Shown: piece after piece, positions 4,204 to 28,340 of the stretch
Position numbering within the stretch: the stretch's first letter is position 1
How the letters are laid out: each line of letters starts with the position of its first letter
Origin: Thermobifida alba
GTDB taxonomy: Bacteria > Actinomycetota > Actinomycetes > Streptosporangiales > Streptosporangiaceae
Direction: 5' to 3'
Length of the DNA: 64,000 nt
Assembly: GCF_023208015.1 (NCBI RefSeq)
Contig: NZ_CP051627.1
Location: forward strand, 3,171,501 to 3,235,500
Notes under the pieces: generated by a model
Told to the model about the DNA's origin: nothing
The model's database searches: none
What the model saw: the letters and a program-made list of their open reading frames with translations, nothing else
Made by a program: the position numbers and the translations under genes

Positions 4204-4914
4204 GTGAGGGTCATTCCGGGGAACAAAAAGCTCACCGGGGCGATTCCCGGCCCCGACGTCTGGAGCGCTCCGTGCACCTACGAGGCGGAGAACCGCGCCG
4301 CCGCCCCCGGGGGCCGGATCGAGGAGGCGATGCGCGGGATCCGGCCCCGGACCGGGGCGCACGTCCTGGACACCGGCTGCGGTACCGGTTTCCACCTGCC
4401 GCGCTTCGCCGTCGAGGCGCGGTGGGTGACCGGGGTGGAGCCGCAGCGGCTCGCCGAGGCGGCTCGGGCGCGCGTGCGGACGCTGCCCGACGCCACCGTA
4501 CACACCGGGGTGGCGCAGCGGCTTCCGGCCGCCGACGCCTCGGTGGACGTGACGCACGCGCGGTGGGCGTCCTTCTTCGGTCCCGGCTGCGAGCCGGGGC
4601 TGGTCGAAGCGGACCGGGTGATGCGGCGCGGCGGAGCGGCGTTCGTCATCGACAACGGCGCCGCCCGCAGCGCCTTCGGCGGCTGGTTCCGCCGGTCGCT
4701 GCCGTCCCACGGCCCGTCGGCGGTCGAGCGCTTCCGGAGCGGTCGCGGGTTCACCCGGCGGTCGGTGGACACGGGCCGGTGGTTCGAGAGCCGCGCGGAC
4801 TTCGAGGCCGTGGCGCGCATCGAGTTCCCCCCGGGCCCGGCCCGGGGGATCGTCGACGGGCACCGGGGCCCGGAGGTCGACCACGCGGTGAACCTCTGGT
4901 GGCGGGGGTACTGA
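4204..4914 (+). CDS. Class I SAM-dependent methyltransferase
   Basis: 236 residues from the GTG at 4204 (protein begins [20 protein letters not shown]). The SAM-binding motif I is [15 protein letters not shown], followed by a motif II acidic residue in VTGVEPQRL and a motif like [20 protein letters not shown]. The fold is that of a ubiE/Methyltransf_11-type enzyme; the methyl acceptor is unknown. An upstream in-frame GTG at 4150 would add 18 residues of poor composition, so the shorter form is preferred; neither start has a strong ribosome-binding site. It is divergent from the isomerase gene and precedes radA. Confidence 0.72.
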
Positions 4915-5167
4915 CCGGGGCACGGCCACCTCCTCCGTCAGGAGCGCCACAGGAACGTGAGGGTCCCGTAGGCGCCGGTGTGCAGGACTCGTGGTGCGGT
5001 GGGGGTACGGTGTTTCCTCCGGGGGCGGAGGCTGGACTCTCCCGAATCGTGTTCTCGTCTCTATGCGACAGCGCACACCGCCGTCTGGTTCCGGTCCGCC
5101 GCCGGAAAATCGCTCCCTGTTCTCCCGCGGTCCCGCCCCGTCCGTCCCGGCTGTCCCCGGCAGGCGC

Positions 5168-5173
5168 TAGCGT
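5168..5173 (+). promoter_or_regulatory. Putative -10 element of leaderless radA promoter
   Basis: TAGCGT, six bases before the radA ATG; the spacing predicts transcription starting at the start codon. Confidence 0.4.
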
Positions 5174-5179
5174 GCAGGT

Positions 5180-6544
5180 ATGGCGAGGGCAGCGAAGCGG
5201 ACGTTCCGGTGTACCGAGTGCGGGTGGACCGCTCCGAAGTGGGTGGGCCGCTGCGGCGACTGCCAGTCGTGGGGCACCGTGGAAGAGGTCTCGGCACCGG
5301 TGGCGGGCGGGGTGACCCCGGTCCGGTCGGGGACGCCCGCGCGCCCCATCGCCGAGATCGACGTGGAGGCCGCGCAGGCGTCGCCGACCGGCCTGGCGGA
5401 GCTCGACCGGGTGCTGGGCGGCGGGGTGGTGCCCGGCGGGGTCCTGCTGCTCGCCGGCGAGCCCGGGGTGGGCAAGTCCACCCTGCTGCTGGAGGTGGCC
5501 GCGCGCTACGCCGCGCTGGGTCCGGTGCTGTACGTGACGGGCGAGGAGTCGGCGGGGCAGGTGCGGCTGCGGGCCGAGCGGGTGGGCGCGCTGGCGCCCA
5601 AGCTCTACCTGGCGGCGGAGACCTCGCTGGCCGCGCTGGCCGGGCACGTCGACGAGGTGGCGCCCCGGCTGCTGGTCGTCGACTCGGTGCAGACCATGAG
5701 CGCGCCCGACGTCCCGGGCGTCCCGGGGGGAGTCACCCAGGTGCGCGAGGTCGCCGCCGGTCTGATCCGGTTGGCCAAGGAGCGCAACATCGCCACCGTC
5801 CTGGTCGGACACGTCACCAAGGACGGCTCCATCGCGGGGCCGCGGGTGCTGGAGCACCTGGTGGACGTGGTACTGCAGTTCGAGGGGGACCGGCACTCGC
5901 AGTTGCGCATGCTGCGCGCGGTGAAGAACCGGTACGGCCCCACCGACGAGATCGGCTGCTTCGAGCTCACCGACTCCGGCATCGTGGGCCTGCCCGATCC
6001 GAGCGGCCTGTTCCTCACCCGCCGCACCGAGCCGGTCCCGGGGACCTGCGTCACGGTCACCGTCGAGGGACGGCGTCCCCTGATCGCCGAGGTGCAGGCG
6101 CTGGTGGCGCCGACCGCGCTGCCGCAGCCGCGCCGTGCCACCTCGGGGCTGGACTCGGCCCGGGTCGCGATGGTGCTGGCGGTGCTGGAGAAGCGGGTCA
6201 ACCTGCGGATGGGCGCGGCCGACGTCTACACCTCCACGGTCGGCGGGGTCCGGCTGGTGGAGCCGTCGGTGGACCTGGCGCTGGCCCTGGCGCTGGCGGG
6301 GTCGCACACCGACCTGGCGCTGCCCCGGGGGATGGTCGCCATCGGCGAGGTGGGGCTGGCCGGCGACGTGCGCGTGGTCAGCGGCCTGCAGCGGCGGCTC
6401 CTGGAAGCGCAGCGGCTGGGGTTCACCACCGCGATCGTGCCCGCCGACGCCGACGATCCGGTCCAGGTGGAGGGCATCAGCACCGTGGGCGTCTCCGACC
6501 TGGGACAGGCGCTGCTCACCGCTTTCCCCGAGCTGCGCCGCTGA
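5180..6544 (+). CDS. radA: DNA repair protein RadA (Sms), branch-migration ATPase
   Basis: 454 residues. RadA is a RecA-like ATPase that drives branch migration during recombinational repair. The N-terminal zinc finger has four cysteines (11, 14, 25, 28). Walker A is GEPGVGKST (93-101), the RadA-specific KNRYG motif is at 249-253, and the C-terminal part is a Lon-protease-like domain (VDLALALALAGSHTDLALP). Length matches the family. TAGCGT lies six bases before the ATG with no ribosome-binding site, so the mRNA is probably leaderless. Confidence 0.96.
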   Translation: MARAAKRTFRCTECGWTAPKWVGRCGDCQSWGTVEEVSAPVAGGVTPVRSGTPARPIAEIDVEAAQASPTGLAELDRVLGGGVVPGGVLLLAGEPGVGKSTLLLEVAARYAALGPVLYVTGEESAGQVRLRAERVGALAPKLYLAAETSLAALAGHVDEVAPRLLVVDSVQTMSAPDVPGVPGGVTQVREVAAGLIRLAKERNIATVLVGHVTKDGSIAGPRVLEHLVDVVLQFEGDRHSQLRMLRAVKNRYGPTDEIGCFELTDSGIVGLPDPSGLFLTRRTEPVPGTCVTVTVEGRRPLIAEVQALVAPTALPQPRRATSGLDSARVAMVLAVLEKRVNLRMGAADVYTSTVGGVRLVEPSVDLALALALAGSHTDLALPRGMVAIGEVGLAGDVRVVSGLQRRLLEAQRLGFTTAIVPADADDPVQVEGISTVGVSDLGQALLTAFPELRR

Positions 6545-13065: not shown

Positions 13066-14706
13066 TCAGCCCGGCGTCTCCCCGCATCCCGCACGGTAGG
13101 CCTTTCCGCTGCTGACCGCGGTGGAGCCGTCGGCCGCACCGGCCGTGACCGTCCAGGCCACCGAGGTGTCCGGGGGAAGACCGCTGACGCTGGCGTACCA
13201 CTCCCCCGGGGTGTTGCCGGGGGACATGGCGGTCTGCTGGGTGCCGGAGGGCCCGGTGACGTCCAGGGTCACCGCGGTCGCCTCCCCCTGGACCCGGGCG
13301 GTGACCGCCAGCGTCCAGACGGGGGGACACTCCTCGGCGGTGACGTCCTGTGCGTGGGCGGAGAGGGCCAGCGGAGCCGTGGACGGCTCGCTGCCGTCCG
13401 CGTCGGGCTGCTCTGCCTCCGGGGTGTCGGCAGGGCCGGGGGGCGTGGGACTCGGCGCGGCGGTTCCGGTCCCGCCGGGGGAGGGGGCGTCCGCGGGAGG
13501 CGTCCCGGTTCCGGCCGTGCCCTGCGGGGCGGAGCCGCTGGGCCGGGGGGCGACGGGTTCCAGGGAGACCACGGGGGCCGCATCGACCTCGTTGCCTCCC
13601 GCCACCACCTCCGACAGCAGCGGCAGCGCGGCCCATCCGGCCACGGCCAGGGCCAGCAGTGCGGCGGCCAGCGTCACCGCCGTGGAGAGCCGCGGCCGGG
13701 AACCGGGGGAGCCGGCGGCGTCGCCGTCGCTGCGCTTCGGGAATCCGTCGGCGCGGTAGGGGCCGGCCCGGTCCGCGAACTCGGCGTGGTGGGCGACGAG
13801 TTCCGGGTCGAAGGCGTTGGCCAGCAGTTGGTCGTGCAGGAAGGCCGGTGCCGCGGCGACGGGCAGGAGGCTCAGCAGCGACGCGGGAGCCACCAGGGCG
13901 GCGCGTTCCCGCGCGCAGTTCTCGCACGTGGCCAGGTGCCGGTTGATCCGTTTGCGCCACAGCGGGCTGAGCCGGCCGTCCCAGTCCCGGAGCAGGGTGC
14001 GCAGCGCCGCGCACTCCCGTCCCCGGGCACGGGCCACCAGCAGCGCGCCGATGGAGCGTTCGAGTTGGGCGCGCGCGGTGGCCGCCACCGCGTTGGCCTG
14101 TCGAACGCTGACTCCCAGGACCGCGGCCAGTCCGGGCCCGTCGAGCTGGTGGCGCAGGGTGAGGTGGATGACCTCCCGCTCACGCGGGTTGAGCCCGCTC
14201 ATGGCCTCGTGGACGAGGACGCGCGTCTCCTCCCGGTGGACACCGGCCTCGGGAGGGCCGAGGGTCTCGTCGCTCAGCTCCGCCGCCTCGTCGAGGGAGG
14301 CGTACCGGTGGCGGCTGCGGAGCACGCGGTGGCACTGGGAGCGCGCGATCGCGTACAGCCAGGGACGCAACGCGTCGGGGTTGCGCAACTGGGTGATCCG
14401 CTCACGCGCGATGAGGAAGACGTCGTGCACCGTGTCGGCGGCGGCCTCGGCGTCGTCAAGCATCCTCAGGCTGTAGTCGTAGAGGCGGTCGGCGTAGGCC
14501 CGGTACGCCGCGCTCAGCCCGTCCCGCTCGTTCTTCGCGATCGCGTGCACGATGTCTGCGTCACGCATGGCCAAGAGCCTAGCCCCGCTGTCGTTGACGG
14601 CATAGTCCCGTGCATCGGGACAGCGGCGCCGCGGTGTCGGTTTCCTCCCGGTGCTGCGGGCGGCTGCGGCCTGGGAGGTCCGCCGGAGGGGGAGGTCGGG
14701 GGTCAT
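13066..14706 (-). CDS. ECF-like sigma factor fused to zinc anti-sigma, membrane and extracytoplasmic domains
   Basis: About 546 residues. Parts in order: a basic N-terminal extension; sigma region 2 (DRLYDYSLRMLDDAEAAADT, VHDVFLIARERI); sigma region 4 with LNPREREVIHLTLRHQLDG; a zinc-binding anti-sigma motif HLATCENC (His-x3-Cys-x2-Cys); a single membrane helix AVTLAAALLALAVAGWAALP; a long Pro/Thr/Gly linker; and an Ig-like extracytoplasmic domain ending in a Cys near the C-terminus. It resembles described actinobacterial sigma factors with cis-acting membrane anti-sigma parts (ECF53-like). The start at 14706 is chosen for its GGAAGGAG site; an ATG at 14568 would give 500 residues and keep all domains. 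Confidence 0.75.
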   Translation of the reverse strand: MTPDLPLRRTSQAAAARSTGRKPTPRRRCPDARDYAVNDSGARLLAMRDADIVHAIAKNERDGLSAAYRAYADRLYDYSLRMLDDAEAAADTVHDVFLIARERITQLRNPDALRPWLYAIARSQCHRVLRSRHRYASLDEAAELSDETLGPPEAGVHREETRVLVHEAMSGLNPREREVIHLTLRHQLDGPGLAAVLGVSVRQANAVAATARAQLERSIGALLVARARGRECAALRTLLRDWDGRLSPLWRKRINRHLATCENCARERAALVAPASLLSLLPVAAAPAFLHDQLLANAFDPELVAHHAEFADRAGPYRADGFPKRSDGDAAGSPGSRPRLSTAVTLAAALLALAVAGWAALPLLSEVVAGGNEVDAAPVVSLEPVAPRPSGSAPQGTAGTGTPPADAPSPGGTGTAAPSPTPPGPADTPEAEQPDADGSEPSTAPLALSAHAQDVTAEECPPVWTLAVTARVQGEATAVTLDVTGPSGTQQTAMSPGNTPGEWYASVSGLPPDTSVAWTVTAGAADGSTAVSSGKAYRAGCGETPG

Positions 14707-14811
14707 CGGGGCTCCTTCCCGGTGCGCCGTGGTCGCGCTCTCACCGGTAGGAGCCGCCGCCCCCGTCGGGGACAACGATTTCTTCCGCGGTGGTCCGGTG
14801 TCCCCGAAGAC

Positions 14812-14846
14812 GCCGGTGGCGACGGGAGGTGCTCCCGTCGCCACCG
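14812..14846 (-). terminator. Perfect 16-bp hairpin after the sulfurtransferase-DUF1416 pair
   Basis: Arms CCGGTGGCGACGGGAG and CTCCCGTCGCCACCGG with a 3-base loop, 33 bases beyond the DUF1416 stop codon on the minus strand. It separates that operon from the sigma-factor gene and argues that the sigma gene starts downstream of it rather than at 14844. Confidence 0.75.
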
Positions 14847-14878
14847 GTGGACGGCCGCGTACGGCGGCCGGACGCGTC

Positions 14879-15181
14879 CTAGGCCTGGACCTGGAGGTCG
14901 ACGACCTTCCCGGTCTCGGCGTTCACCGTGTACTCGGCGGTGAAGCCCTTGGAGGCCAGCACCCGGATCTTCCACTCGCCGTCGGCGGCGAAGAAGCGGA
15001 AGGTGCCCTCCTCACCGGTCACGACCTCTCCGACGAAGTCGTCGGAGGCGCTGAGCAGACGCACGTAGGCACTGGCGAGCGGCTGGCCGTCCCGGGTCAC
15101 CGTGCCCTGGACGACCGCCTGGTTGCCCGCGTCGACGTCGGCGAGGGCCACGCCCCCGACCGGAGCTCCGCAGGTGCTCAC
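14879..15181 (-). CDS. DUF1416 domain protein (CysA-associated)
   Basis: 100 residues from a GTG at 15181 (MSTCGAPVGGVALADVDAG). DUF1416 is a small beta-sandwich family, mostly actinobacterial, nearly always beside a thiosulfate sulfurtransferase. The Cys near the N-terminus and the transthyretin-like repeat (QAVVQGTVTRDGQPLASAYV) are typical. The GTG overlaps the sulfurtransferase stop codon by four bases (GTGA), so translation is coupled. The molecular role is unknown. Confidence 0.85.
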   Translation of the reverse strand: MSTCGAPVGGVALADVDAGNQAVVQGTVTRDGQPLASAYVRLLSASDDFVGEVVTGEEGTFRFFAADGEWKIRVLASKGFTAEYTVNAETGKVVDLQVQA

Positions 15182-16017
15182 TTGGCCTCCCCCAGTTCCA
15201 CCGGAACGCCGATCAGCGAGCCGTACTCGGTCCAGGAGCCGTCGTAGTTCTTCACGTTCGGGATGCCGAGGAGCTCGTGCAGCGCGAACCACGCGATGGA
15301 GGAGCGCTCACCGATCCGGCAGTAGGCGATGATCTCCTTGTCCAGGTCGACCCCGGCCTCCTCGTACAGCTTGCGCAGCTCCTCGTCGGACTTGAAGGTG
15401 CCGTCCTCGTTGGCGACCTTGGCCCACGGGATGTTGCGCGCGGTCGGGATGTGGCCGGGGACCTGGGAGACCTCCTGCGGCAGGTGCGCGGGGGCCAGCA
15501 GCTTGCCGGTGAACTCGTCGGGGGAGCGGACGTCGACGAGGGCCTTGTTGCCGATCGCCGCGACGACCTCGTCGCGGAAGGCGCGGATGGAGGTGTCCTG
15601 CTCCTTGGCGGTGTAGGTGGTCCGCGGCCGCTGCGGGACCTCCGTGACCAGCTCGCGGGAGTCCAGCTCCCACTTCTTGCGGCCGCCGTCGAGCAGGCGC
15701 ACCTTCTCGTGGCCGTAGAGCTTGAAGTACCAGTAGGCGTAGGCGGCGAACCAGTTGTTGTTGCCGCCGTAGAGCACCACGGTGTGGTCGTTGGCGATGC
15801 CGCGCTCGGACAGCAGCGCCTCGAAGCCGGCCTTGTCCACGAAGTCGCGCCGGACCGGGTCCTGGAGGTCCTTCTTCCAGTCGATCTTGATCGCGTTGCG
15901 GATGTGTCCCTTGTCGTAGGCCGAGGTGTCCTCGTCGACCTCGACGATCACGACCTCAGGGTCATCCAGGTGAGCCTCCACCCAGTCGGCGTCCACGAGG
16001 ACGTCGGAGCGGCTCAT
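15178..16017 (-). CDS. Thiosulfate sulfurtransferase (rhodanese, CysA/SseA type)
   Basis: 279 residues with two rhodanese domains. The N-terminal one is inactive; the C-terminal one carries catalytic Cys233 in the loop CRIGERSS. It transfers sulfane sulfur from thiosulfate to a thiophilic acceptor. A perfect AAGGAGG precedes the ATG at 16017. It forms a translationally coupled pair with DUF1416 and lies 230 bases downstream of a short leader peptide and promoter, so it is likely regulated by sulfur or cysteine supply. Confidence 0.92.
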   Translation of the reverse strand: MSRSDVLVDADWVEAHLDDPEVVIVEVDEDTSAYDKGHIRNAIKIDWKKDLQDPVRRDFVDKAGFEALLSERGIANDHTVVLYGGNNNWFAAYAYWYFKLYGHEKVRLLDGGRKKWELDSRELVTEVPQRPRTTYTAKEQDTSIRAFRDEVVAAIGNKALVDVRSPDEFTGKLLAPAHLPQEVSQVPGHIPTARNIPWAKVANEDGTFKSDEELRKLYEEAGVDLDKEIIAYCRIGERSSIAWFALHELLGIPNVKNYDGSWTEYGSLIGVPVELGEAK

Positions 16018-16217
16018 GGGGAACCTCCTTGTTGTGTGTTCTACCGTTCTGGCACAGCGTGCGAATCTGCCGGGACGGAACGTCGTCGTCCGGGGCGCAC
16101 TCGTGGCAGGTGCTTTCCGTCGTGTCGGAGCGGGTGCGTGGCACGGGCATCGGGACGGGGCCCCGGTCGGGGCAGTCGTCTCCGTGCGTGGCGAAGAGGG
16201 GAAGGGAGCGGCGGGGA

Positions 16218-16233
16218 ACGGCCGCACGGCCGT
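16218..16233 (-). repeat. Short inverted repeat after the leader peptide
   Basis: ACGGCCGCACGGCCGT forms a 6-bp stem with a 4-base loop, 14 bases past the leader stop codon. It could be part of an attenuator, but there is no U-tract and the stem is short. Confidence 0.3.
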
Positions 16234-16246
16234 GAGCGGTCTCGCT

Positions 16247-16336
16247 CTAACGGGCAGCGTGACAGAGCGCCGTGGCGACACGGCAGAAGTCGACGGCGCG
16301 TCGCTTCGTCAGGAGCGCATCTGTCAGGAGAGTCAC
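16247..16336 (-). CDS. 29-residue leader peptide upstream of the sulfurtransferase operon
   Basis: GTG at 16336, TAG at 16247-16249. The peptide starts MTLLTDALLTKRRAVDFC and ends RVATALCHAAR. It matches, from memory, the pattern of actinobacterial leader peptides (TKRRAVDLCRV-type) found ahead of sulfur-metabolism genes. It has two Cys codons in its second half, so cysteinyl-tRNA supply could be sensed. The start codon is seven bases from a -10 element, so it is probably translated from a leaderless message. Too short for a normal ORF search. Confidence 0.6.
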   Translation of the reverse strand: MTLLTDALLTKRRAVDFCRVATALCHAAR

Positions 16337-16343
16337 GGAGACG

Positions 16344-16372
16344 ATGTTACGTGCTCGGCATCCGATTGTCAC
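16344..16372 (-). promoter_or_regulatory. Promoter of the leader peptide-sulfurtransferase transcript
   Basis: On the minus strand, -35 GTGACA (16367-16372) and -10 TAACAT (16344-16349) are separated by exactly 17 bases. The predicted start of transcription coincides with the GTG of the leader peptide at 16336. Confidence 0.6.
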
Positions 16373-16399
16373 GGGTGTCCTGTTTCACAGGACGGAAGA

Positions 16400-16433
16400 A
16401 CAGGGCCGTTCCGTCGGGACGGAGCGGCCCTGT
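16400..16433. terminator. Hairpin terminator between DUF2993 gene and leader promoter
   Basis: Outer arms ACAGGGCCG and CGGCCCTGT enclose an inner stem TCCGTC/GACGGA around GGG. It is 21 bases past the DUF2993 stop codon on the minus strand and probably insulates the leader promoter from read-through. Confidence 0.65.
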
Positions 16434-16453
16434 GCGGTCCGGTCTGCGGCGGG

Positions 16454-17140
16454 CTAGGCCTCGGGGGAGCCGACGATCTGCACGTCGCTGCCCACGGCGG
16501 TTGCCTGGATGCCGTTGGGCAGGAGTTCGACGCCGGTCACCTGCAGGTCGAAGGGCAGCCGGGGCAGTTTCATGGTGAGCGTGAGCATGCTCTCCACCGT
16601 GCTCACCGGCACCAGTTCCTCGCTCAGTTCGATGCCGCTCGGGATGACCGTGAGCTCGTCGCCGTTCACCTCGATCTGGAAGTCACTGGAGAGGGAGACG
16701 CTGAACCCCTGGTAGGCGAGGTCTCCGGAGATGCGGGGCGCTCCGTTCGCGGCCTCGATCACCACGCCCTCGGGCAGCCGCTTCTGCAGTTCGCTGTAGG
16801 GGAGCAGCACCGTGCCCTCGACTCCCCCGGCCACCACGCTGGGCTCCGTCAGCAGGTCGGCGAAGGGGGCGCTGACCTCGGTCAGCGTCACGTCGACCCG
16901 GTCGACCTGCACCTCCTCGATGGTCATCGCGCCGGTGACCACGTGGATCTCCTGGTACTCCCCGCCGATGGCCTGGTTGAGGAACGGAAAGCCCCCGATG
17001 GTGACCTCCGGTTCGGCTGCCATCTCGTACTGCTGGGAGATCCGCTTGGCGATCTCGCTCTCCGCCGCGTAGTGCGCCCCCCTGTCGGCGGCTGCCAGCA
17101 GAACCAGCAGGAAAATCAGGAGGACGAGGAACTTTCTCAT
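16454..17140 (-). CDS. DUF2993 secreted/membrane-anchored protein
   Basis: 228 residues. An N-terminal hydrophobic stretch (FLVLLIFLLVLLAAADRGA) acts as signal or anchor. The rest matches DUF2993: VTIGGFPFLNQAIGGEYQEI, an LLPYSELQKRLPEGV segment, and repeated amphipathic beta strands. The family is widespread in actinobacteria and probably faces the outside of the membrane; its role is unknown. GGAAG precedes the ATG. Confidence 0.8.
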   Translation of the reverse strand: MRKFLVLLIFLLVLLAAADRGAHYAAESEIAKRISQQYEMAAEPEVTIGGFPFLNQAIGGEYQEIHVVTGAMTIEEVQVDRVDVTLTEVSAPFADLLTEPSVVAGGVEGTVLLPYSELQKRLPEGVVIEAANGAPRISGDLAYQGFSVSLSSDFQIEVNGDELTVIPSGIELSEELVPVSTVESMLTLTMKLPRLPFDLQVTGVELLPNGIQATAVGSDVQIVGSPEA

Positions 17141-17293
17141 CGGGCTTCCAGCACACTCCGTAGATTCGGCGAGCCGCGCCGCGCTTCGAGCGCACCGGAC
17201 GCGGGTATCGCTAGGAGATTACTGCAATCGTCCGATTGGCCTCAGTCTGCGGTGGAGTATCCCAGTGAACTTTGAGGAACCCCACAGGACCGG

Positions 17294-24175: not shown

Positions 24176-24192
24176 AGCGGCTCCCGGGGCGG

Positions 24193-24240
24193 GCGGCGGC
24201 TGTTTCCGCAACGGTGCGCCGTTGTGGAAACAGCCGCCGC
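24193..24240 (+). terminator. Long hairpin terminator after rraA
   Basis: Arms GCGGCGGCTGTTTCC and GGAAACAGCCGCCGC extend through CAACGG/CCGTTG around a TGCG loop, 18 bases after the rraA stop codon. Confidence 0.75.
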
Positions 24241-24743
24241 CCCTCCCTGACGGGCACCGGCTGGCGCCGGTGGAGGCCGCGTCCCGACGTGCCCCCCTTT
24301 TTTCCATCTCCCCCTGGTACGCCGGGACGCGGCCCGTCTGCAACGGGTGGACGGGACGTGCCGGGGACGCCCGCCCACCCGAGTCCGGGGGCACCCACAC
24401 GACCGCCGCAGCCGCAGGGGACGGCCGCCGCCGCCGAACGCTCCGCGCCCCCGAACACAGGTCCATGAGCAGCACAGTCAACGCTCGGTGAGTGCCTTGC
24501 TTCAGAATGTTACTCCGCCGAGACGGAAGCGTGGGTCGATTCGCGATTTTCCCCGCACCGCCCACCTTCGCCCCGGGTCCGCGGGCCTTCCGGCGGCCGG
24601 ATTCGCCCCCGGCTGCCCCACTCTGGTCGACAGTAGCGTCACCTGGGGCCGGATCTCGCATTCTGGCCCTGATGACGGGTCGGCTCCTGGCAGGATGAGA
24701 GACGCGTGAGCCCCGGAGAGCCGGAGCGGATTGAGGAGGCGCG
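24241..24743. other. 503-base intergenic region before pglX-like gene
   Basis: No gene is supported on either strand. The stretch contains a run CCCCCCTTTTTTCC near 24291 and a locally AT-richer part at 24490-24560, which may hold the promoter of the downstream gene. No repeats or insertion-sequence ends were seen. Confidence 0.4.
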
Positions 24744-27700
24744 GTGGCCGGCCACAAAGACCGAGGTGAGCTACTGGCGGGACTGCGTCGACAGGTCACG
24801 CTGCTGGAGGAGGACCTCCGCGCCCGTAGCGAGGAGGACGAGTTCGCAGCCGCCCTGGAGGCGGAGTACCGCGAGGCCCGCGAGGCGCAGCGCACCGCCG
24901 CCGCCTACCGGACCTGGCGGGAGGAGCGGGTCACCCAGGCGGCGGCGGCCTGGGTGCTGGGCACGCTGTTCGTCCGGTTCTGCGAGGACAACGGGCTGAT
25001 CGAGCAGCCCTGGATCGCCGGTCCCGGAGACCGGCTGCAGACGGCGGAGGCCCGGCAGCGGGCCTTCTTCGCCACCACGCCCAATCTCGACGACCGCGAC
25101 TGGCTGGTCTCCGCCTTCGTCCACCTCGCCAAGTGCCACCGCACCACCGAAGGGCTGTTCAACCGCTCCTACAACCCGCTGTGGCGGCTCACCCCCGGCG
25201 CCGAGGCGGCCAGGGCCCTGCTGGAGTTCTGGCGCCGCGGCCCCGACGGGGCGCCGGCGTACGACCTCACCGACCCCGACCTGGACACCCGCTTCCTCGC
25301 CGACCTGTACCAGGAGGTGAGCGAGCCCGCCCGCAAGGCCTACGCCCTGCTGCACACCCCGGACTTCGTCGTGGACCTCCTGCTCGACCTCACCCTGGAG
25401 CCGGCGGTCGAGGAGTTCGGTCTGGAGCCCGACCTGGAGGTGCGCACCGGCTCGGGCGAGGTCGTCTGGCGCCACAGGGGACTGCGGACCGTCGATCCCG
25501 CCTGCGGCAGCGGCGAGTTCCTCCTCGGGTTGTTCACCCGCCTCCTCGCCCGGCACCGCGCCTGCGCGGGGCCCGACGCCGACCGCTGGGAACTCGTCCG
25601 CAAGGCCCTGAACTCGGTGCACGGCTGCGACAAGAACCCGTTCGCGGCCAGTATCGCCCGGTTCCGCCTGCTCGTCGCCGTCCTGCGGGAGACCGGCGCG
25701 CGCCGCCTGGACCAGGCCCCGGACTTCCCCGTCCACGTCGCGGTGGGCGACTCGCTGCTGCACGGCCGGGACGCCCAGACCGCCACCGACGACCTGTCCC
25801 CCGCCGACCGGCGGGTGTTCACCTACACCACCGAGGACGTCCACGACCACGTCCGGCGGGTGGACCTGCTGGGCCGGGACAGCTACCACGTGGTGGTGAC
25901 CAGCCCGCCCCACACCGCCGTCCGGGACCGGCAGGAGAACGCCAACTACCGCTCCGTCTACGACGCCTGCTCGGGCACGTACCCGCTGTCGGTGCCGTTC
26001 GCCCAGCGGATCTTCCGGCTGGCCACCCGCGAACACGCGGGCTTCTCGGGGCAGCTCACCGCCCACTCGCTGCTGAGACGCGAGTTCGGCCGACGGCTCG
26101 TCGAGGACTTCTTCGGCCGGAAGGTGAAACTCACCCACGTCGTCGACACCTCCGGCGTGTTCCTCCCCGGCCGCACCACCCCGACCGTCGTCCTCGTCGG
26201 CCGCAACACCACCCAGGGATGGGGGGACCCGATCCGCGAGGTCCTGGGGGTACGCGGGGAACCCGCCCCGCCCGAGGACCCGGCCCAGGGCGTCGTGTGG
26301 CGCTCCATCGTGGAGAACATCCACCGCCCCGGTATCGAGACCTCCTGGGTGAGCGTCCGCAACGGCGACCGCGACCTGCGCATCGCCCACCCCTGGTCGC
26401 TCAGCGGCGACGGCGCCGACGAACTGCACCGGCGCCTGGAGAACGCCCCGGAACGCCTCGGCGACCTCGTCGCCGAGATCGGACCCGACGCGCCGTTCCG
26501 CGAGGACGGCGTCCACGCGGTGGGCGAGGACGTCCTGGAGCGCGCCCGGATCGGCCCGGAGCACCGGCGTCCGTCAGCCGACGGCGACGCCGTCCGGGAC
26601 TTCCGGATCGTCGCCCCGGTCGCCTCGCTGTGGCCGTACTCCGGCGAGCCGCCCACCGCGGCACTCTCCCCCGAGGCGGAGCGCTTCCTCTGGGCCTACC
26701 GGACCCTCCTGCGCGACCGCACCGGCTCCGAGAGCGCCTCCCGCGACCACGGCCCGGCCTGGTACGGGTACGCGGTGTCCCGCACCGACCGGCACCGCGC
26801 CCCGCTCGTCATCGCCTGCGCGGAGACCGCCACGCACAACCACTTCGTGCTGGACCGGGACGGGACGGTGTTCCGGCGGAGCGCCCCGGTGCTGCGGCTC
26901 CCGGAGGGGGCCACCGAGGAGGACCACCTGCGGCTGCTGGGGGTGCTGAACTCCGCCGCGGTGTGCTTCTGGCTCAAGCAGGTGAACCAGGGCGCGAGCG
27001 GCGGGGCGGGACGGGCCTCCCGGGAGGAGGCGTGGGCGGAGCGCTACCAGTTCGCCCCGGTCAGGCTGCGGGACCTCCCCCTGCCCGCCCACCTGCCGCT
27101 CGAACCCGGCCGCACCCTGGACTCCCTGGCCCGCCGGGCCGCCGCCCACGAACCCGCCGCCGTCGTGGCCCGGGACGTGCCCTCCCGGCGCGCCCTGGCC
27201 GAGGCCCGGGAGTCCGCCGAGTCGGTCCGCCGCCGGATGGTCGCGCTGCAGGAGGAGCTGGACTGGCAGGTGTACGGCCTCTACGGGCTGCTCTCCGACG
27301 CCGAGGCCGCCGCCGTGCTCTCCCCCGACCCCGAGAAGGTGCCCGGGATCGCCCCGGGCGAGCGCGCCTTCGAGATCGTCCTGGCCCGCCGGATCGCGGT
27401 CGGCGACTCCACGACCGACTGGTTCGCCCGGCACGGCGCCGCCCCCGTCACCGAACTCCCCCGCCACTGGCCGGAGGAGTACCGCCGGACCGTGCAGGCC
27501 CGCATCGACCTCATCGAGAAGCACCGCGACCTGGCCCTGGTGGAGCGCCCCGAGTACAAACGCCGCTGGCAGTGCGAGCCCTGGGAGGTCCGCCAGGCCG
27601 CCGCGCTGCGGTCCTGGCTGCTGGACCGCTGCGAGCAGCCCGGCCTGTGGTTCGCCTCCGCCCCGGGGCGGGAGGGCGTCCCCCGCCCCCTGTCCCTCAC

Positions 27701-28340
27701 CGAACTGGCCGAGGCCCTGGTCCGCGCGCCCGGCGGGGACGACGTGACCGCGGTGGCCGAGTGGTACGCCGCCGAGCACCTGGGACGCCCCGGCGCGGAC
27801 CTGGTCGAGGTGCTCGAACAGCTCGTCGCCGACCAGCACGTCCCCTTCCTGGCCGCGTACCGCTACCGGCCGTCGGGGCTGCGCAAGTACGCGCGGTGGC
27901 AAAAGGTGTGGGACCTGCAGCAGGAGGAGGACCGCACCGGACGGCGCCTGGACATCCCGCTGCCGCCCAGGTACACCTCCGCGGACTTCCGCGAGCCGTC
28001 GTACTGGGCCAACCGCGGCCGGCTCGACCTGCCCCGGGAGCGGTTCCTGTCCTATCCGGGGACGGAACCGCCGGACGGTCCCGCGATCGTGCTGGGCTGG
28101 GCCGGCTGGGACCACGCGCAGCGGGCCGAGGCCCTCATCGGCCTCGTCGCGGCCCGCACCGCCGAGGAGCGGCCCCGGGAACAGGTCGTTCCACTGCTCG
28201 CCGGGGTGCTCGAACTCCTGCCGTGGCTCCGCCGGTGGCACGACGGCGGCACCGTCGAGCGGGTCGCCCGCTGGCTCGCCGAACACCGGGAACGCCACGG
28301 CCTCAGCGAGGACCACCTCACCACCTGGCGGCCCGCCTGA
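24744..28340 (+). CDS. pglX: BREX-2-type PglX adenine-specific DNA methyltransferase, altered motif IV
   Basis: 1198 residues, the full length of BREX-2 PglX proteins. N-terminal helical region with TLFVRFCEDNGLIEQPW; SAM motif I DPACGSGEF (251-259); a catalytic-loop position at 387-390 that reads SPPH where N6-adenine methyltransferases have NPPY; then YRSVYDACSGTYPLSVPFAQ, target-recognition regions, and a conserved C-terminus (FREPSYWANRGRLDLPRERF, GWAGWDHAQRAEAL). In phage-defence BREX-2, PglX methylates host DNA and works with PglW, PglY, PglZ and others, none of which is in this window. GAGGAGG precedes the GTG. The His in place of the aromatic residue suggests changed or lost methylation. 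Confidence 0.85.
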   Translation: MAGHKDRGELLAGLRRQVTLLEEDLRARSEEDEFAAALEAEYREAREAQRTAAAYRTWREERVTQAAAAWVLGTLFVRFCEDNGLIEQPWIAGPGDRLQTAEARQRAFFATTPNLDDRDWLVSAFVHLAKCHRTTEGLFNRSYNPLWRLTPGAEAARALLEFWRRGPDGAPAYDLTDPDLDTRFLADLYQEVSEPARKAYALLHTPDFVVDLLLDLTLEPAVEEFGLEPDLEVRTGSGEVVWRHRGLRTVDPACGSGEFLLGLFTRLLARHRACAGPDADRWELVRKALNSVHGCDKNPFAASIARFRLLVAVLRETGARRLDQAPDFPVHVAVGDSLLHGRDAQTATDDLSPADRRVFTYTTEDVHDHVRRVDLLGRDSYHVVVTSPPHTAVRDRQENANYRSVYDACSGTYPLSVPFAQRIFRLATREHAGFSGQLTAHSLLRREFGRRLVEDFFGRKVKLTHVVDTSGVFLPGRTTPTVVLVGRNTTQGWGDPIREVLGVRGEPAPPEDPAQGVVWRSIVENIHRPGIETSWVSVRNGDRDLRIAHPWSLSGDGADELHRRLENAPERLGDLVAEIGPDAPFREDGVHAVGEDVLERARIGPEHRRPSADGDAVRDFRIVAPVASLWPYSGEPPTAALSPEAERFLWAYRTLLRDRTGSESASRDHGPAWYGYAVSRTDRHRAPLVIACAETATHNHFVLDRDGTVFRRSAPVLRLPEGATEEDHLRLLGVLNSAAVCFWLKQVNQGASGGAGRASREEAWAERYQFAPVRLRDLPLPAHLPLEPGRTLDSLARRAAAHEPAAVVARDVPSRRALAEARESAESVRRRMVALQEELDWQVYGLYGLLSDAEAAAVLSPDPEKVPGIAPGERAFEIVLARRIAVGDSTTDWFARHGAAPVTELPRHWPEEYRRTVQARIDLIEKHRDLALVERPEYKRRWQCEPWEVRQAAALRSWLLDRCEQPGLWFASAPGREGVPRPLSLTELAEALVRAPGGDDVTAVAEWYAAEHLGRPGADLVEVLEQLVADQHVPFLAAYRYRPSGLRKYARWQKVWDLQQEEDRTGRRLDIPLPPRYTSADFREPSYWANRGRLDLPRERFLSYPGTEPPDGPAIVLGWAGWDHAQRAEALIGLVAARTAEERPREQVVPLLAGVLELLPWLRRWHDGGTVERVARWLAEHRERHGLSEDHLTTWRPA

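What the first reader, a model, noticed from the sequence alone, without database searches (positions are those of the whole stretch)
24744..28340. Orphan BREX-2-type PglX with SPPH instead of NPPY
The protein is full-length and matches BREX-2 PglX over its length, including the C-terminus. At residues 387-390 it has Ser-Pro-Pro-His where N6-adenine methyltransferases need Asn/Asp/Ser-Pro-Pro-Tyr/Phe/Trp. The SAM motif I is intact. No PglW, PglY, PglZ, BrxD or BrxHI lies within 24 kb upstream or 35 kb downstream. It could bind DNA and SAM without methylating, act as a stand-alone restriction or regulatory protein, or be a relict. The neighbouring prim-pol-like gene converges with it at a four-base gap. 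This is the strongest candidate in the window for a defence or DNA-modification system not yet described.
Basis: partly seen in the sequence, partly recalled or inferred. Interest (0 to 1): 0.75.

Follow-up and report, generated by a model that had tools for sequence, protein, structure and literature searches.

The report
Catalytically disarmed twin of BREX methyltransferase
All four Thermobifida genomes examined keep, at the same chromosomal spot, a full-length copy of the phage-defence DNA methyltransferase PglX whose methylation active site has been altered while the rest of the protein is kept by selection; since Streptomyces appears to have evolved such copies separately, this is probably an undescribed, non-methylating helper of the BREX-2 (Pgl) system.

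Summary
In detail: window 24744-28340 encodes a full-length BREX-2 PglX (NF033451, 1595 bits) with SPPH for NPPY. It is not a genome-level orphan. The 4.9-Mb genome (genus Thermobifida) has a BREX-2 core 1.7 Mb away (PglW, PglY, PglZ, BrxD, BrxHI, no pglX) and a second, stand-alone PglX with NPPY. All four Thermobifida species carry an orthologue of the window gene at the same site (SPPH, EPPH, DPPY, SPPA). Among 158 PglX proteins, 147 have NPPY; the 11 exceptions (4 Thermobifida, 7 Streptomyces) all also change the motif I residue after GSG. A mixture-model test rejects a single origin (p = 0.016; a simpler model gives 0.053). In both groups the target-recognition domain, normally hypervariable, is conserved. 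Codon models show purifying selection (omega 0.09-0.17), weaker than on canonical PglX. Ten of 11 such genomes carry a BREX-2 core plus NPPY PglX. All seven Streptomyces copies sit next to a HEC-01-like ATPase/DUF4276 pair. Best reading: a selected pseudo-methyltransferase, a non-methylating accessory of BREX-2. Its biochemical role is inferred. The converging prim-pol gene is family-wide and unrelated. New variant of a known kind.

The parts
24744..28340 (+). pglX* (name used here): full-length BREX-2-type PglX with altered methyltransferase active site, 1198 aa
   Evidence: AlphaFold2 model with mean pLDDT 86.8; matches CamA, M.BseCI and BrxX/PglX structures
24733..24739 (+). Ribosome-binding site GAGGAGG, 4 nt before GTG; GGGAGGCGCG-GTG in the other three species
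25353..25355 (+). Residue 204 before the Thr-Pro of what is probably motif X; Gln in canonical PglX, His here, changed in all four Thermobifida copies (H, H, R, P)
25494..25517 (+). Motif I DPACGSGE (residues 251-258): glycine loop kept, near-invariant His258 replaced by Glu
25902..25913 (+). Motif IV SPPH (residues 387-390) where canonical PglX has NPPY
26364..26843 (+). Target-recognition region (residues about 541-700): hypervariable in canonical PglX, conserved among PglX* orthologues
27237..28334 (+). C-terminal DUF7008 domain (residues 832-1197), highly conserved

Best explanation
The gene encodes a conserved pseudo-methyltransferase, called PglX* here. It probably arose in an ancestor of Thermobifida by duplication of a BREX-2 PglX and came to lie between rraA and the prim-pol gene, where all four species examined still keep it. 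Its active site changed at the motif IV Asn and the motif I His (and at a Gln next to motif X), so it most likely no longer transfers methyl groups to adenine; this is least certain for the copy that keeps DPPY. The fold, most family-invariant residues, the C-terminal domain and a fixed target-recognition domain are kept by selection. Most likely it works as a non-methylating, DNA-binding accessory of the BREX-2 system encoded elsewhere in the genome: it occupies a fixed DNA site or joins BREX-2 complexes in place of the active PglX, and so senses, recruits or restrains BREX-2 without writing a mark. Shown here: the sequence changes, purifying selection, conserved recognition domain, recurrence, and co-occurrence with BREX-2 and an active-type PglX. 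Inferred: loss of methylation, DNA binding, contact with BREX-2, and the direction of the effect.
For: Four syntenic orthologues in four Thermobifida species, 68-79% identical, with SPPH, EPPH, DPPY and SPPA. Of 158 distinct PglX proteins, 147 have NPPY (144 of them with GSG-His) and all 11 exceptions also lost that His. Of 54 near-invariant methyltransferase-domain sites, only H258 and N387 are lost in all Thermobifida copies; the Streptomyces copies lose the same two plus A472. GY94 omega 0.09-0.17, far from 1 (LRT 220-610), and 0.06-0.14 within the methyltransferase domain; no internal stops where a neutral simulation gives about 5. Recognition-domain identity is at least 0.62 in all 21 PglX* pairs, against a mean of 0.34, with 1.1% at 0.6 or more, in 1403 canonical pairs of similar overall identity. 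All four Thermobifida and six of seven Streptomyces genomes have a BREX-2 PglZ and an NPPY PglX; in three Streptomyces the PglX* gene lies beside PglW in the BREX-2 locus. Literature: Y381A in S. coelicolor PglX nearly abolishes methylation and does not restore resistance (PMC4365076); Y511A in E. coli BrxX abolishes defence and methylation (PMC11842806).
Against: No biochemical data. One Thermobifida orthologue keeps DPPY and three Streptomyces copies keep EPPY, so weak activity cannot be excluded in all copies. The E. coli Y511A mutant also lost DNA binding, so copies with His, Ala or Ser at that position may bind DNA poorly. Protein evolution is 2-3 times faster than in canonical PglX by the codon model, and simple counts show first and second codon positions changing nearly as fast as third positions between the two closest species. 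S. durocortorensis has PglX* without detectable BREX-2 in a fragmented assembly. Only one genome per species was available. A physical link to BREX-2 inside Thermobifida is absent.
Confidence: 0.55

Rival explanations
1. Slowly decaying relict: after duplication the copy lost methylation and is drifting, held only by weak residual constraint.
For: Omega 2-3 times that of canonical PglX; by simple counts codon positions 1, 2 and 3 change at 0.124, 0.122 and 0.155 between the two closest species; the fraction of family-invariant residues kept in the N-terminal and methyltransferase domains is lower (0.81-0.85) in the window, T. cellulosilytica and T. fusca copies than in canonical PglX.
Against: Omega 0.09-0.17 rejects neutrality strongly; intact frames and conserved ribosome-binding site in four species; methyltransferase domain as constrained as the other domains; the same pair of residues changed in a separate Streptomyces clade.
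Confidence: 0.17
2. Still an active methyltransferase with altered chemistry or target, for example using DPPY or EPPY, or methylating cytosine N4 through an SPP motif.
For: DPPY is a working motif in many adenine methyltransferases and SPP-type motifs occur in N4-cytosine enzymes (own knowledge); the motif I glycine loop and the acidic residues at 296 and 336 are kept.
Against: The fourth position is His, Ala or Ser in five copies, where the Tyr is needed in PglX and BrxX (PMC4365076, PMC11842806); the motif varies freely within one genus; the motif I His changes in all 11 copies and the motif X Gln in all four Thermobifida copies.
Confidence: 0.13
3. Non-methylating structural partner of the active PglX: a PglX/PglX* heterodimer in the manner of METTL3/METTL14, where METTL14 carries EPPL in place of DPPW.
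For: Glu is the commonest replacement, in 8 of 11 copies; 10 of 11 genomes have an active-type PglX; METTL14 is a precedent for a degenerate methyltransferase needed by an active partner (PMC5023411).
Against: BrxX was studied as a monomer on DNA, with an inactive dimeric form when Ocr is bound (PMC11842806); no complex could be modelled here; PglX* recognition domains are not specially close to those of the canonical copies in the same genomes.
Confidence: 0.15

Closest known systems
BREX-2 / Pgl methyltransferase PglX (S. coelicolor SCO6627; NCBIfam NF033451)
   Same: Full-length homology, N-terminal domain, methyltransferase fold, recognition domain and DUF7008 C-terminus; 1595 bits to the family model
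   Different: Motif IV SPPH instead of NPPY, motif I GSGE instead of GSGH, not in a BREX-2 locus, recognition domain conserved between species
Type I BREX BrxX/PglX (PDB 9EWZ, 8C45, 8Q56)
   Same: Same overall architecture over nearly the whole length
   Different: Only 11-13% identity; BrxX has NPPY and needs its Tyr for DNA binding, defence and methylation (PMC11842806)
METTL14 (pseudo-methyltransferase of the METTL3/METTL14 complex)
   Same: Degenerate motif IV (EPPL; PglX* has EPPx or SPPx) in a kept methyltransferase fold that co-occurs with an active paralogue (PMC5023411)
   Different: Eukaryotic RNA enzyme, different protein family; an analogy only
CamA orphan adenine methyltransferase (PDB 7LT5, 7RFK)
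   Same: Best structural match to residues 180-849, Z 27.6, rmsd 3.6 over 537 residues
   Different: CamA is catalytically active and lacks the BREX N- and C-terminal domains
HEC-01 ATPase/DUF4276 pair (PADLOC)
   Same: Lies divergently beside all seven Streptomyces PglX* genes
   Different: Absent beside the Thermobifida gene; only weak ATPase similarity elsewhere in two of the four genomes

Membership tests
BREX-2 PglX (NF033451) | Full-length match above the family cut-off | tested here: met
   1595 bits against 400; residues 10-1198
BREX-2 PglX (NF033451) | N6-adenine methyltransferase motif IV NPPY | tested here: not met
   SPPH at 387-390; 147 of 158 relatives have NPPY
BREX-2 PglX (NF033451) | SAM motif I DPxCGSGH | tested here: inconclusive
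   Glycine loop kept, His258 replaced by Glu; SAM binding itself not testable
BREX-2 PglX (NF033451) | Gene within a BREX-2 locus (pglW, pglY, pglZ, brxD, brxHI) | tested here: not met
   Locus is hemL-rraA-pglX*-prim-pol-hemB; the core is 1.7 Mb away
BREX-2 system in this genome | Core PglW, PglY, PglZ, BrxD and a helicase at the BrxHI position present | tested here: met
   C1:4835533-4863617; family matches to PglW, PglY, PglZ and BrxD, DEXH-type helicase last
BREX-2 system in this genome | A PglX with NPPY present | tested here: met
   Stand-alone copy at C1:272258-275896
Active N6-adenine DNA methyltransferase | Methylation of DNA | not testable with these tools
   Needs a methylome or an in vitro assay
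Decaying pseudogene | Neutral evolution, broken frames | tested here: not met
   Omega 0.09-0.17, LRT against 1 of 220-610; frames intact in four species
PglX* with HEC-01-like pair (Streptomyces module) | Adjacent AAA ATPase and DUF4276 genes | tested here: not met
   Neighbours are rraA and prim-pol; only weak ATPase matches in two Thermobifida genomes
Type IIG restriction-modification enzyme | Nuclease domain fused to the methyltransferase | tested here: inconclusive
   No nuclease domain in the Pfam scan; helical N-terminal region not tested further

The most novel reading that the evidence does not exclude
PglX* is a methylation-free DNA sensor with a fixed target that directs BREX-2, or in Streptomyces the adjacent HEC-01-like ATPase/DUF4276 pair, to foreign DNA, so that self and non-self are told apart without a methyl mark. 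It evolved twice from PglX by changing the same two active-site residues.
Probability: 0.22. Interest if true: 0.85.

Novelty: new variant of a known kind. Interest (0 to 1): 0.62.

Why it matters
[quoted passage not shown] A selected PglX that apparently cannot write, has a fixed reader domain, occurs with active-type BREX-2 genes and seems to have arisen twice would separate the two roles in nature. Deleting it in BREX-2 strains would directly test whether reading alone can steer or restrain the system. Automated annotation calls these proteins adenine methyltransferases: both NF033451 and PADLOC label the window protein PglX. No paper describing them was found in the open-access library searched.

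Tried and rejected
A first tree placed two Streptomyces PglX* with NPPY relatives; this was an error of mine, because second NPPY copies in the same loci had overwritten them in the script, and replace it. The alignment read one sequence on the wrong strand and was not used. Prim-pol as a functional partner: rejected, since it lies next to hemB and rraA without pglX in related genera. Sequencing error: rejected. HEC-01-like partner in Thermobifida: not found. Single origin of all 11 PglX*: p 0.053 under LG+G4, 0.016 under the C20 mixture, so two origins are preferred, not proven. Sequence search of the PDB with the single protein gave nothing; structure comparison did. Promoter and terminator consensus scan: nothing. 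Literature searches for inactive or pseudo-methyltransferase PglX found no description; the 2026 BREX survey (PMC12839542) does not mention NPPY, and the passages read do not mention such a protein; its supplements could not be read. A search for HEC-01 papers gave only unrelated hits. Fisher tests ignore relatedness and serve as description only.

Full report
Observation. The ORF at 24744-28340 is a GTG-started gene of 1198 codons with a strong ribosome-binding site (GAGGAGG, conserved as GGGAGG in three other species). It matches the NCBI model for BREX-2 PglX over residues 10-1198 with 1595 bits (cut-off 400), PADLOC PglX and the DUF7008 C-terminal domain. Residues 387-390 are SPPH.

Not an orphan in its genome. 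The window is C1:3171501-3235500 of a 4.90-Mb single-contig genome. The same chromosome holds PglW (4835533-4839810), PglY (4853600-4857394), PglZ (4857391-4860147), BrxD (4860148-4861485) and a helicase at the BrxHI position (4861482-4863617), with McrBC-like, metallo-beta-lactamase and 2139-aa genes between PglW and PglY. That core has no pglX. A second PglX, with NPPY, stands alone at 272258-275896. Contig lengths and titles show that two congeners are T. cellulosilytica TB100 and T. fusca NBRC 14071, so the genus is Thermobifida. All four species have a BREX-2 PglZ. Three (window species, G002, T. fusca) have a core without pglX together with a stand-alone NPPY pglX; T. cellulosilytica has pglX inside its core, and G002 also has a second core of that kind.

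A conserved clade at one locus. Each of the four species has an orthologue of the window gene between rraA and prim-pol. Pairwise identity is 68-79%, while neighbouring haem genes are mostly 86-95%. In related genera rraA and prim-pol are neighbours without pglX, so the gene came to this site once and was kept. The tree puts the four together (support 100) as sister of the PglX found inside Thermobifida BREX-2 cores (99). Motif IV is SPPH, EPPH, DPPY and SPPA.

Recurrence. Among 158 distinct PglX sequences, 147 have NPPY, 144 of them with GSG-His. The 11 others all replace both the motif IV Asn and that His. Seven of these are Streptomyces, always with Glu in place of Asn (EPPS, EPPF, EPPY). 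The Streptomyces seven form a separate clade; forcing all PglX* into one clade is rejected under a mixture model (p 0.016) and borderline under a simpler one (p 0.053). Of 54 near-invariant methyltransferase-domain residues of canonical PglX, only H258 and N387 are lost in all Thermobifida copies; the Streptomyces copies lose these two and A472. The loss is narrow rather than scattered.

Selection. A codon model that allows for the GC-rich codon usage gives omega 0.09-0.17 for all six Thermobifida pairs and rejects omega 1 with likelihood-ratio statistics of 220 to 610; canonical PglX gives 0.058 in the one pair that is not saturated, neighbours 0.03-0.09. The methyltransferase domain is as constrained as the rest (0.06-0.14). 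A neutral simulation gives about five internal stops at 12% divergence, while none is seen. Simple counts show faster change at first and second codon positions than in neighbours, so constraint is relaxed relative to canonical PglX, not absent.

A fixed recognition domain. In canonical PglX pairs with 70-88% identity over the N-terminal and methyltransferase domains, the recognition region (541-660) averages 34% identity, and 1.1% of 1403 pairs reach 60%. All 21 PglX* pairs reach 62% or more. Within Thermobifida the canonical copies change this region (35-45% identity) while PglX* does not (65-68%). A restriction-modification specificity module is expected to diversify; this one does not.

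Genome partners. All four Thermobifida and six of the seven Streptomyces PglX* genomes carry a BREX-2 PglZ and an NPPY PglX. The exception, S. durocortorensis, has a fragmented assembly; its near-identical relative G506 has both. In three Streptomyces PglX* lies beside PglW, with the NPPY PglX on the other side of PglW. In all seven Streptomyces, PglX* is divergent from a two-gene unit, a 471-aa AAA_21 ATPase and a DUF4276 protein, which PADLOC scores as HEC-01A and HEC-01B. Among 393 Streptomyces genomes, 17 have this ATPase; the six closest have PglX* nearby, the other 11 do not. Thermobifida lacks this unit beside PglX*.

Structure. The predicted model is confident (mean pLDDT 86.8). It resembles DNA-bound CamA (Z 27.6, rmsd 3.6, 537 residues, model range 180-849) and M.BseCI, and matches BrxX/PglX over nearly its whole length. 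The DNA-binding architecture therefore seems to be kept.

Mechanism. In S. coelicolor PglX, changing the Tyr of NPPY nearly abolished methylation and did not restore phage resistance (PMC4365076); in E. coli BrxX the same change abolished DNA binding, defence and methylation (PMC11842806). From this and the sequence, PglX* of the window most likely does not methylate. Whether it still binds DNA is open: the Tyr that anchors the flipped base is replaced by a non-aromatic or His residue in five of 11 copies, but the recognition domain and fold are kept by selection. The reading preferred here is a non-methylating BREX-2 accessory that reads a fixed site or takes the place of PglX in BREX-2 complexes. 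METTL14, with EPPL in place of DPPW, is a precedent for such a partner (PMC5023411), by analogy only. What it does to BREX-2 cannot be decided from sequence.

Verdict. The finding is a new variant of a known kind: a pseudo-methyltransferase form of PglX, present in at least two actinobacterial genera, not described in the papers searched.

Noticed in passing
window 24191-24242: A perfect 24-bp inverted repeat with a 4-nt loop between rraA and pglX*; folded with its flanks -68.6 kcal/mol, z -8.1. Possibly the rraA terminator.
   Followed up: partly
G000 C1:4840297-4853251 (L053): McrBC-like pair, a metallo-beta-lactamase/beta-CASP protein and a 2139-aa protein lie antisense between PglW and PglY of the BREX-2 core.
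   Followed up: partly
G000 C1:272258-275896; G002 C1:3493754-3497377; T. fusca C16:25872-29525: Stand-alone NPPY PglX occurs in exactly the three Thermobifida species that have a BREX-2 core lacking pglX: a split BREX-2.
   Followed up: partly
L224:5228-7287, L133:7410-9454 and five further Streptomyces loci: HEC-01-like AAA_21 ATPase plus DUF4276 gene pair divergent from every Streptomyces PglX*.
   Followed up: yes
L001 (G000 C1:3611-4156): A 1366-aa frame with an MmeI-type target-recognition domain near the start of the contig; an AAA ATPase-like match lies next to it at 4681-5772.
   Followed up: no
L133 (S. alkaliterrae) 13411-17273: A two-gene unit of helicase-like and OLD-type ATPase-like proteins follows PglX* there (function read from the sequence only).
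   Followed up: no
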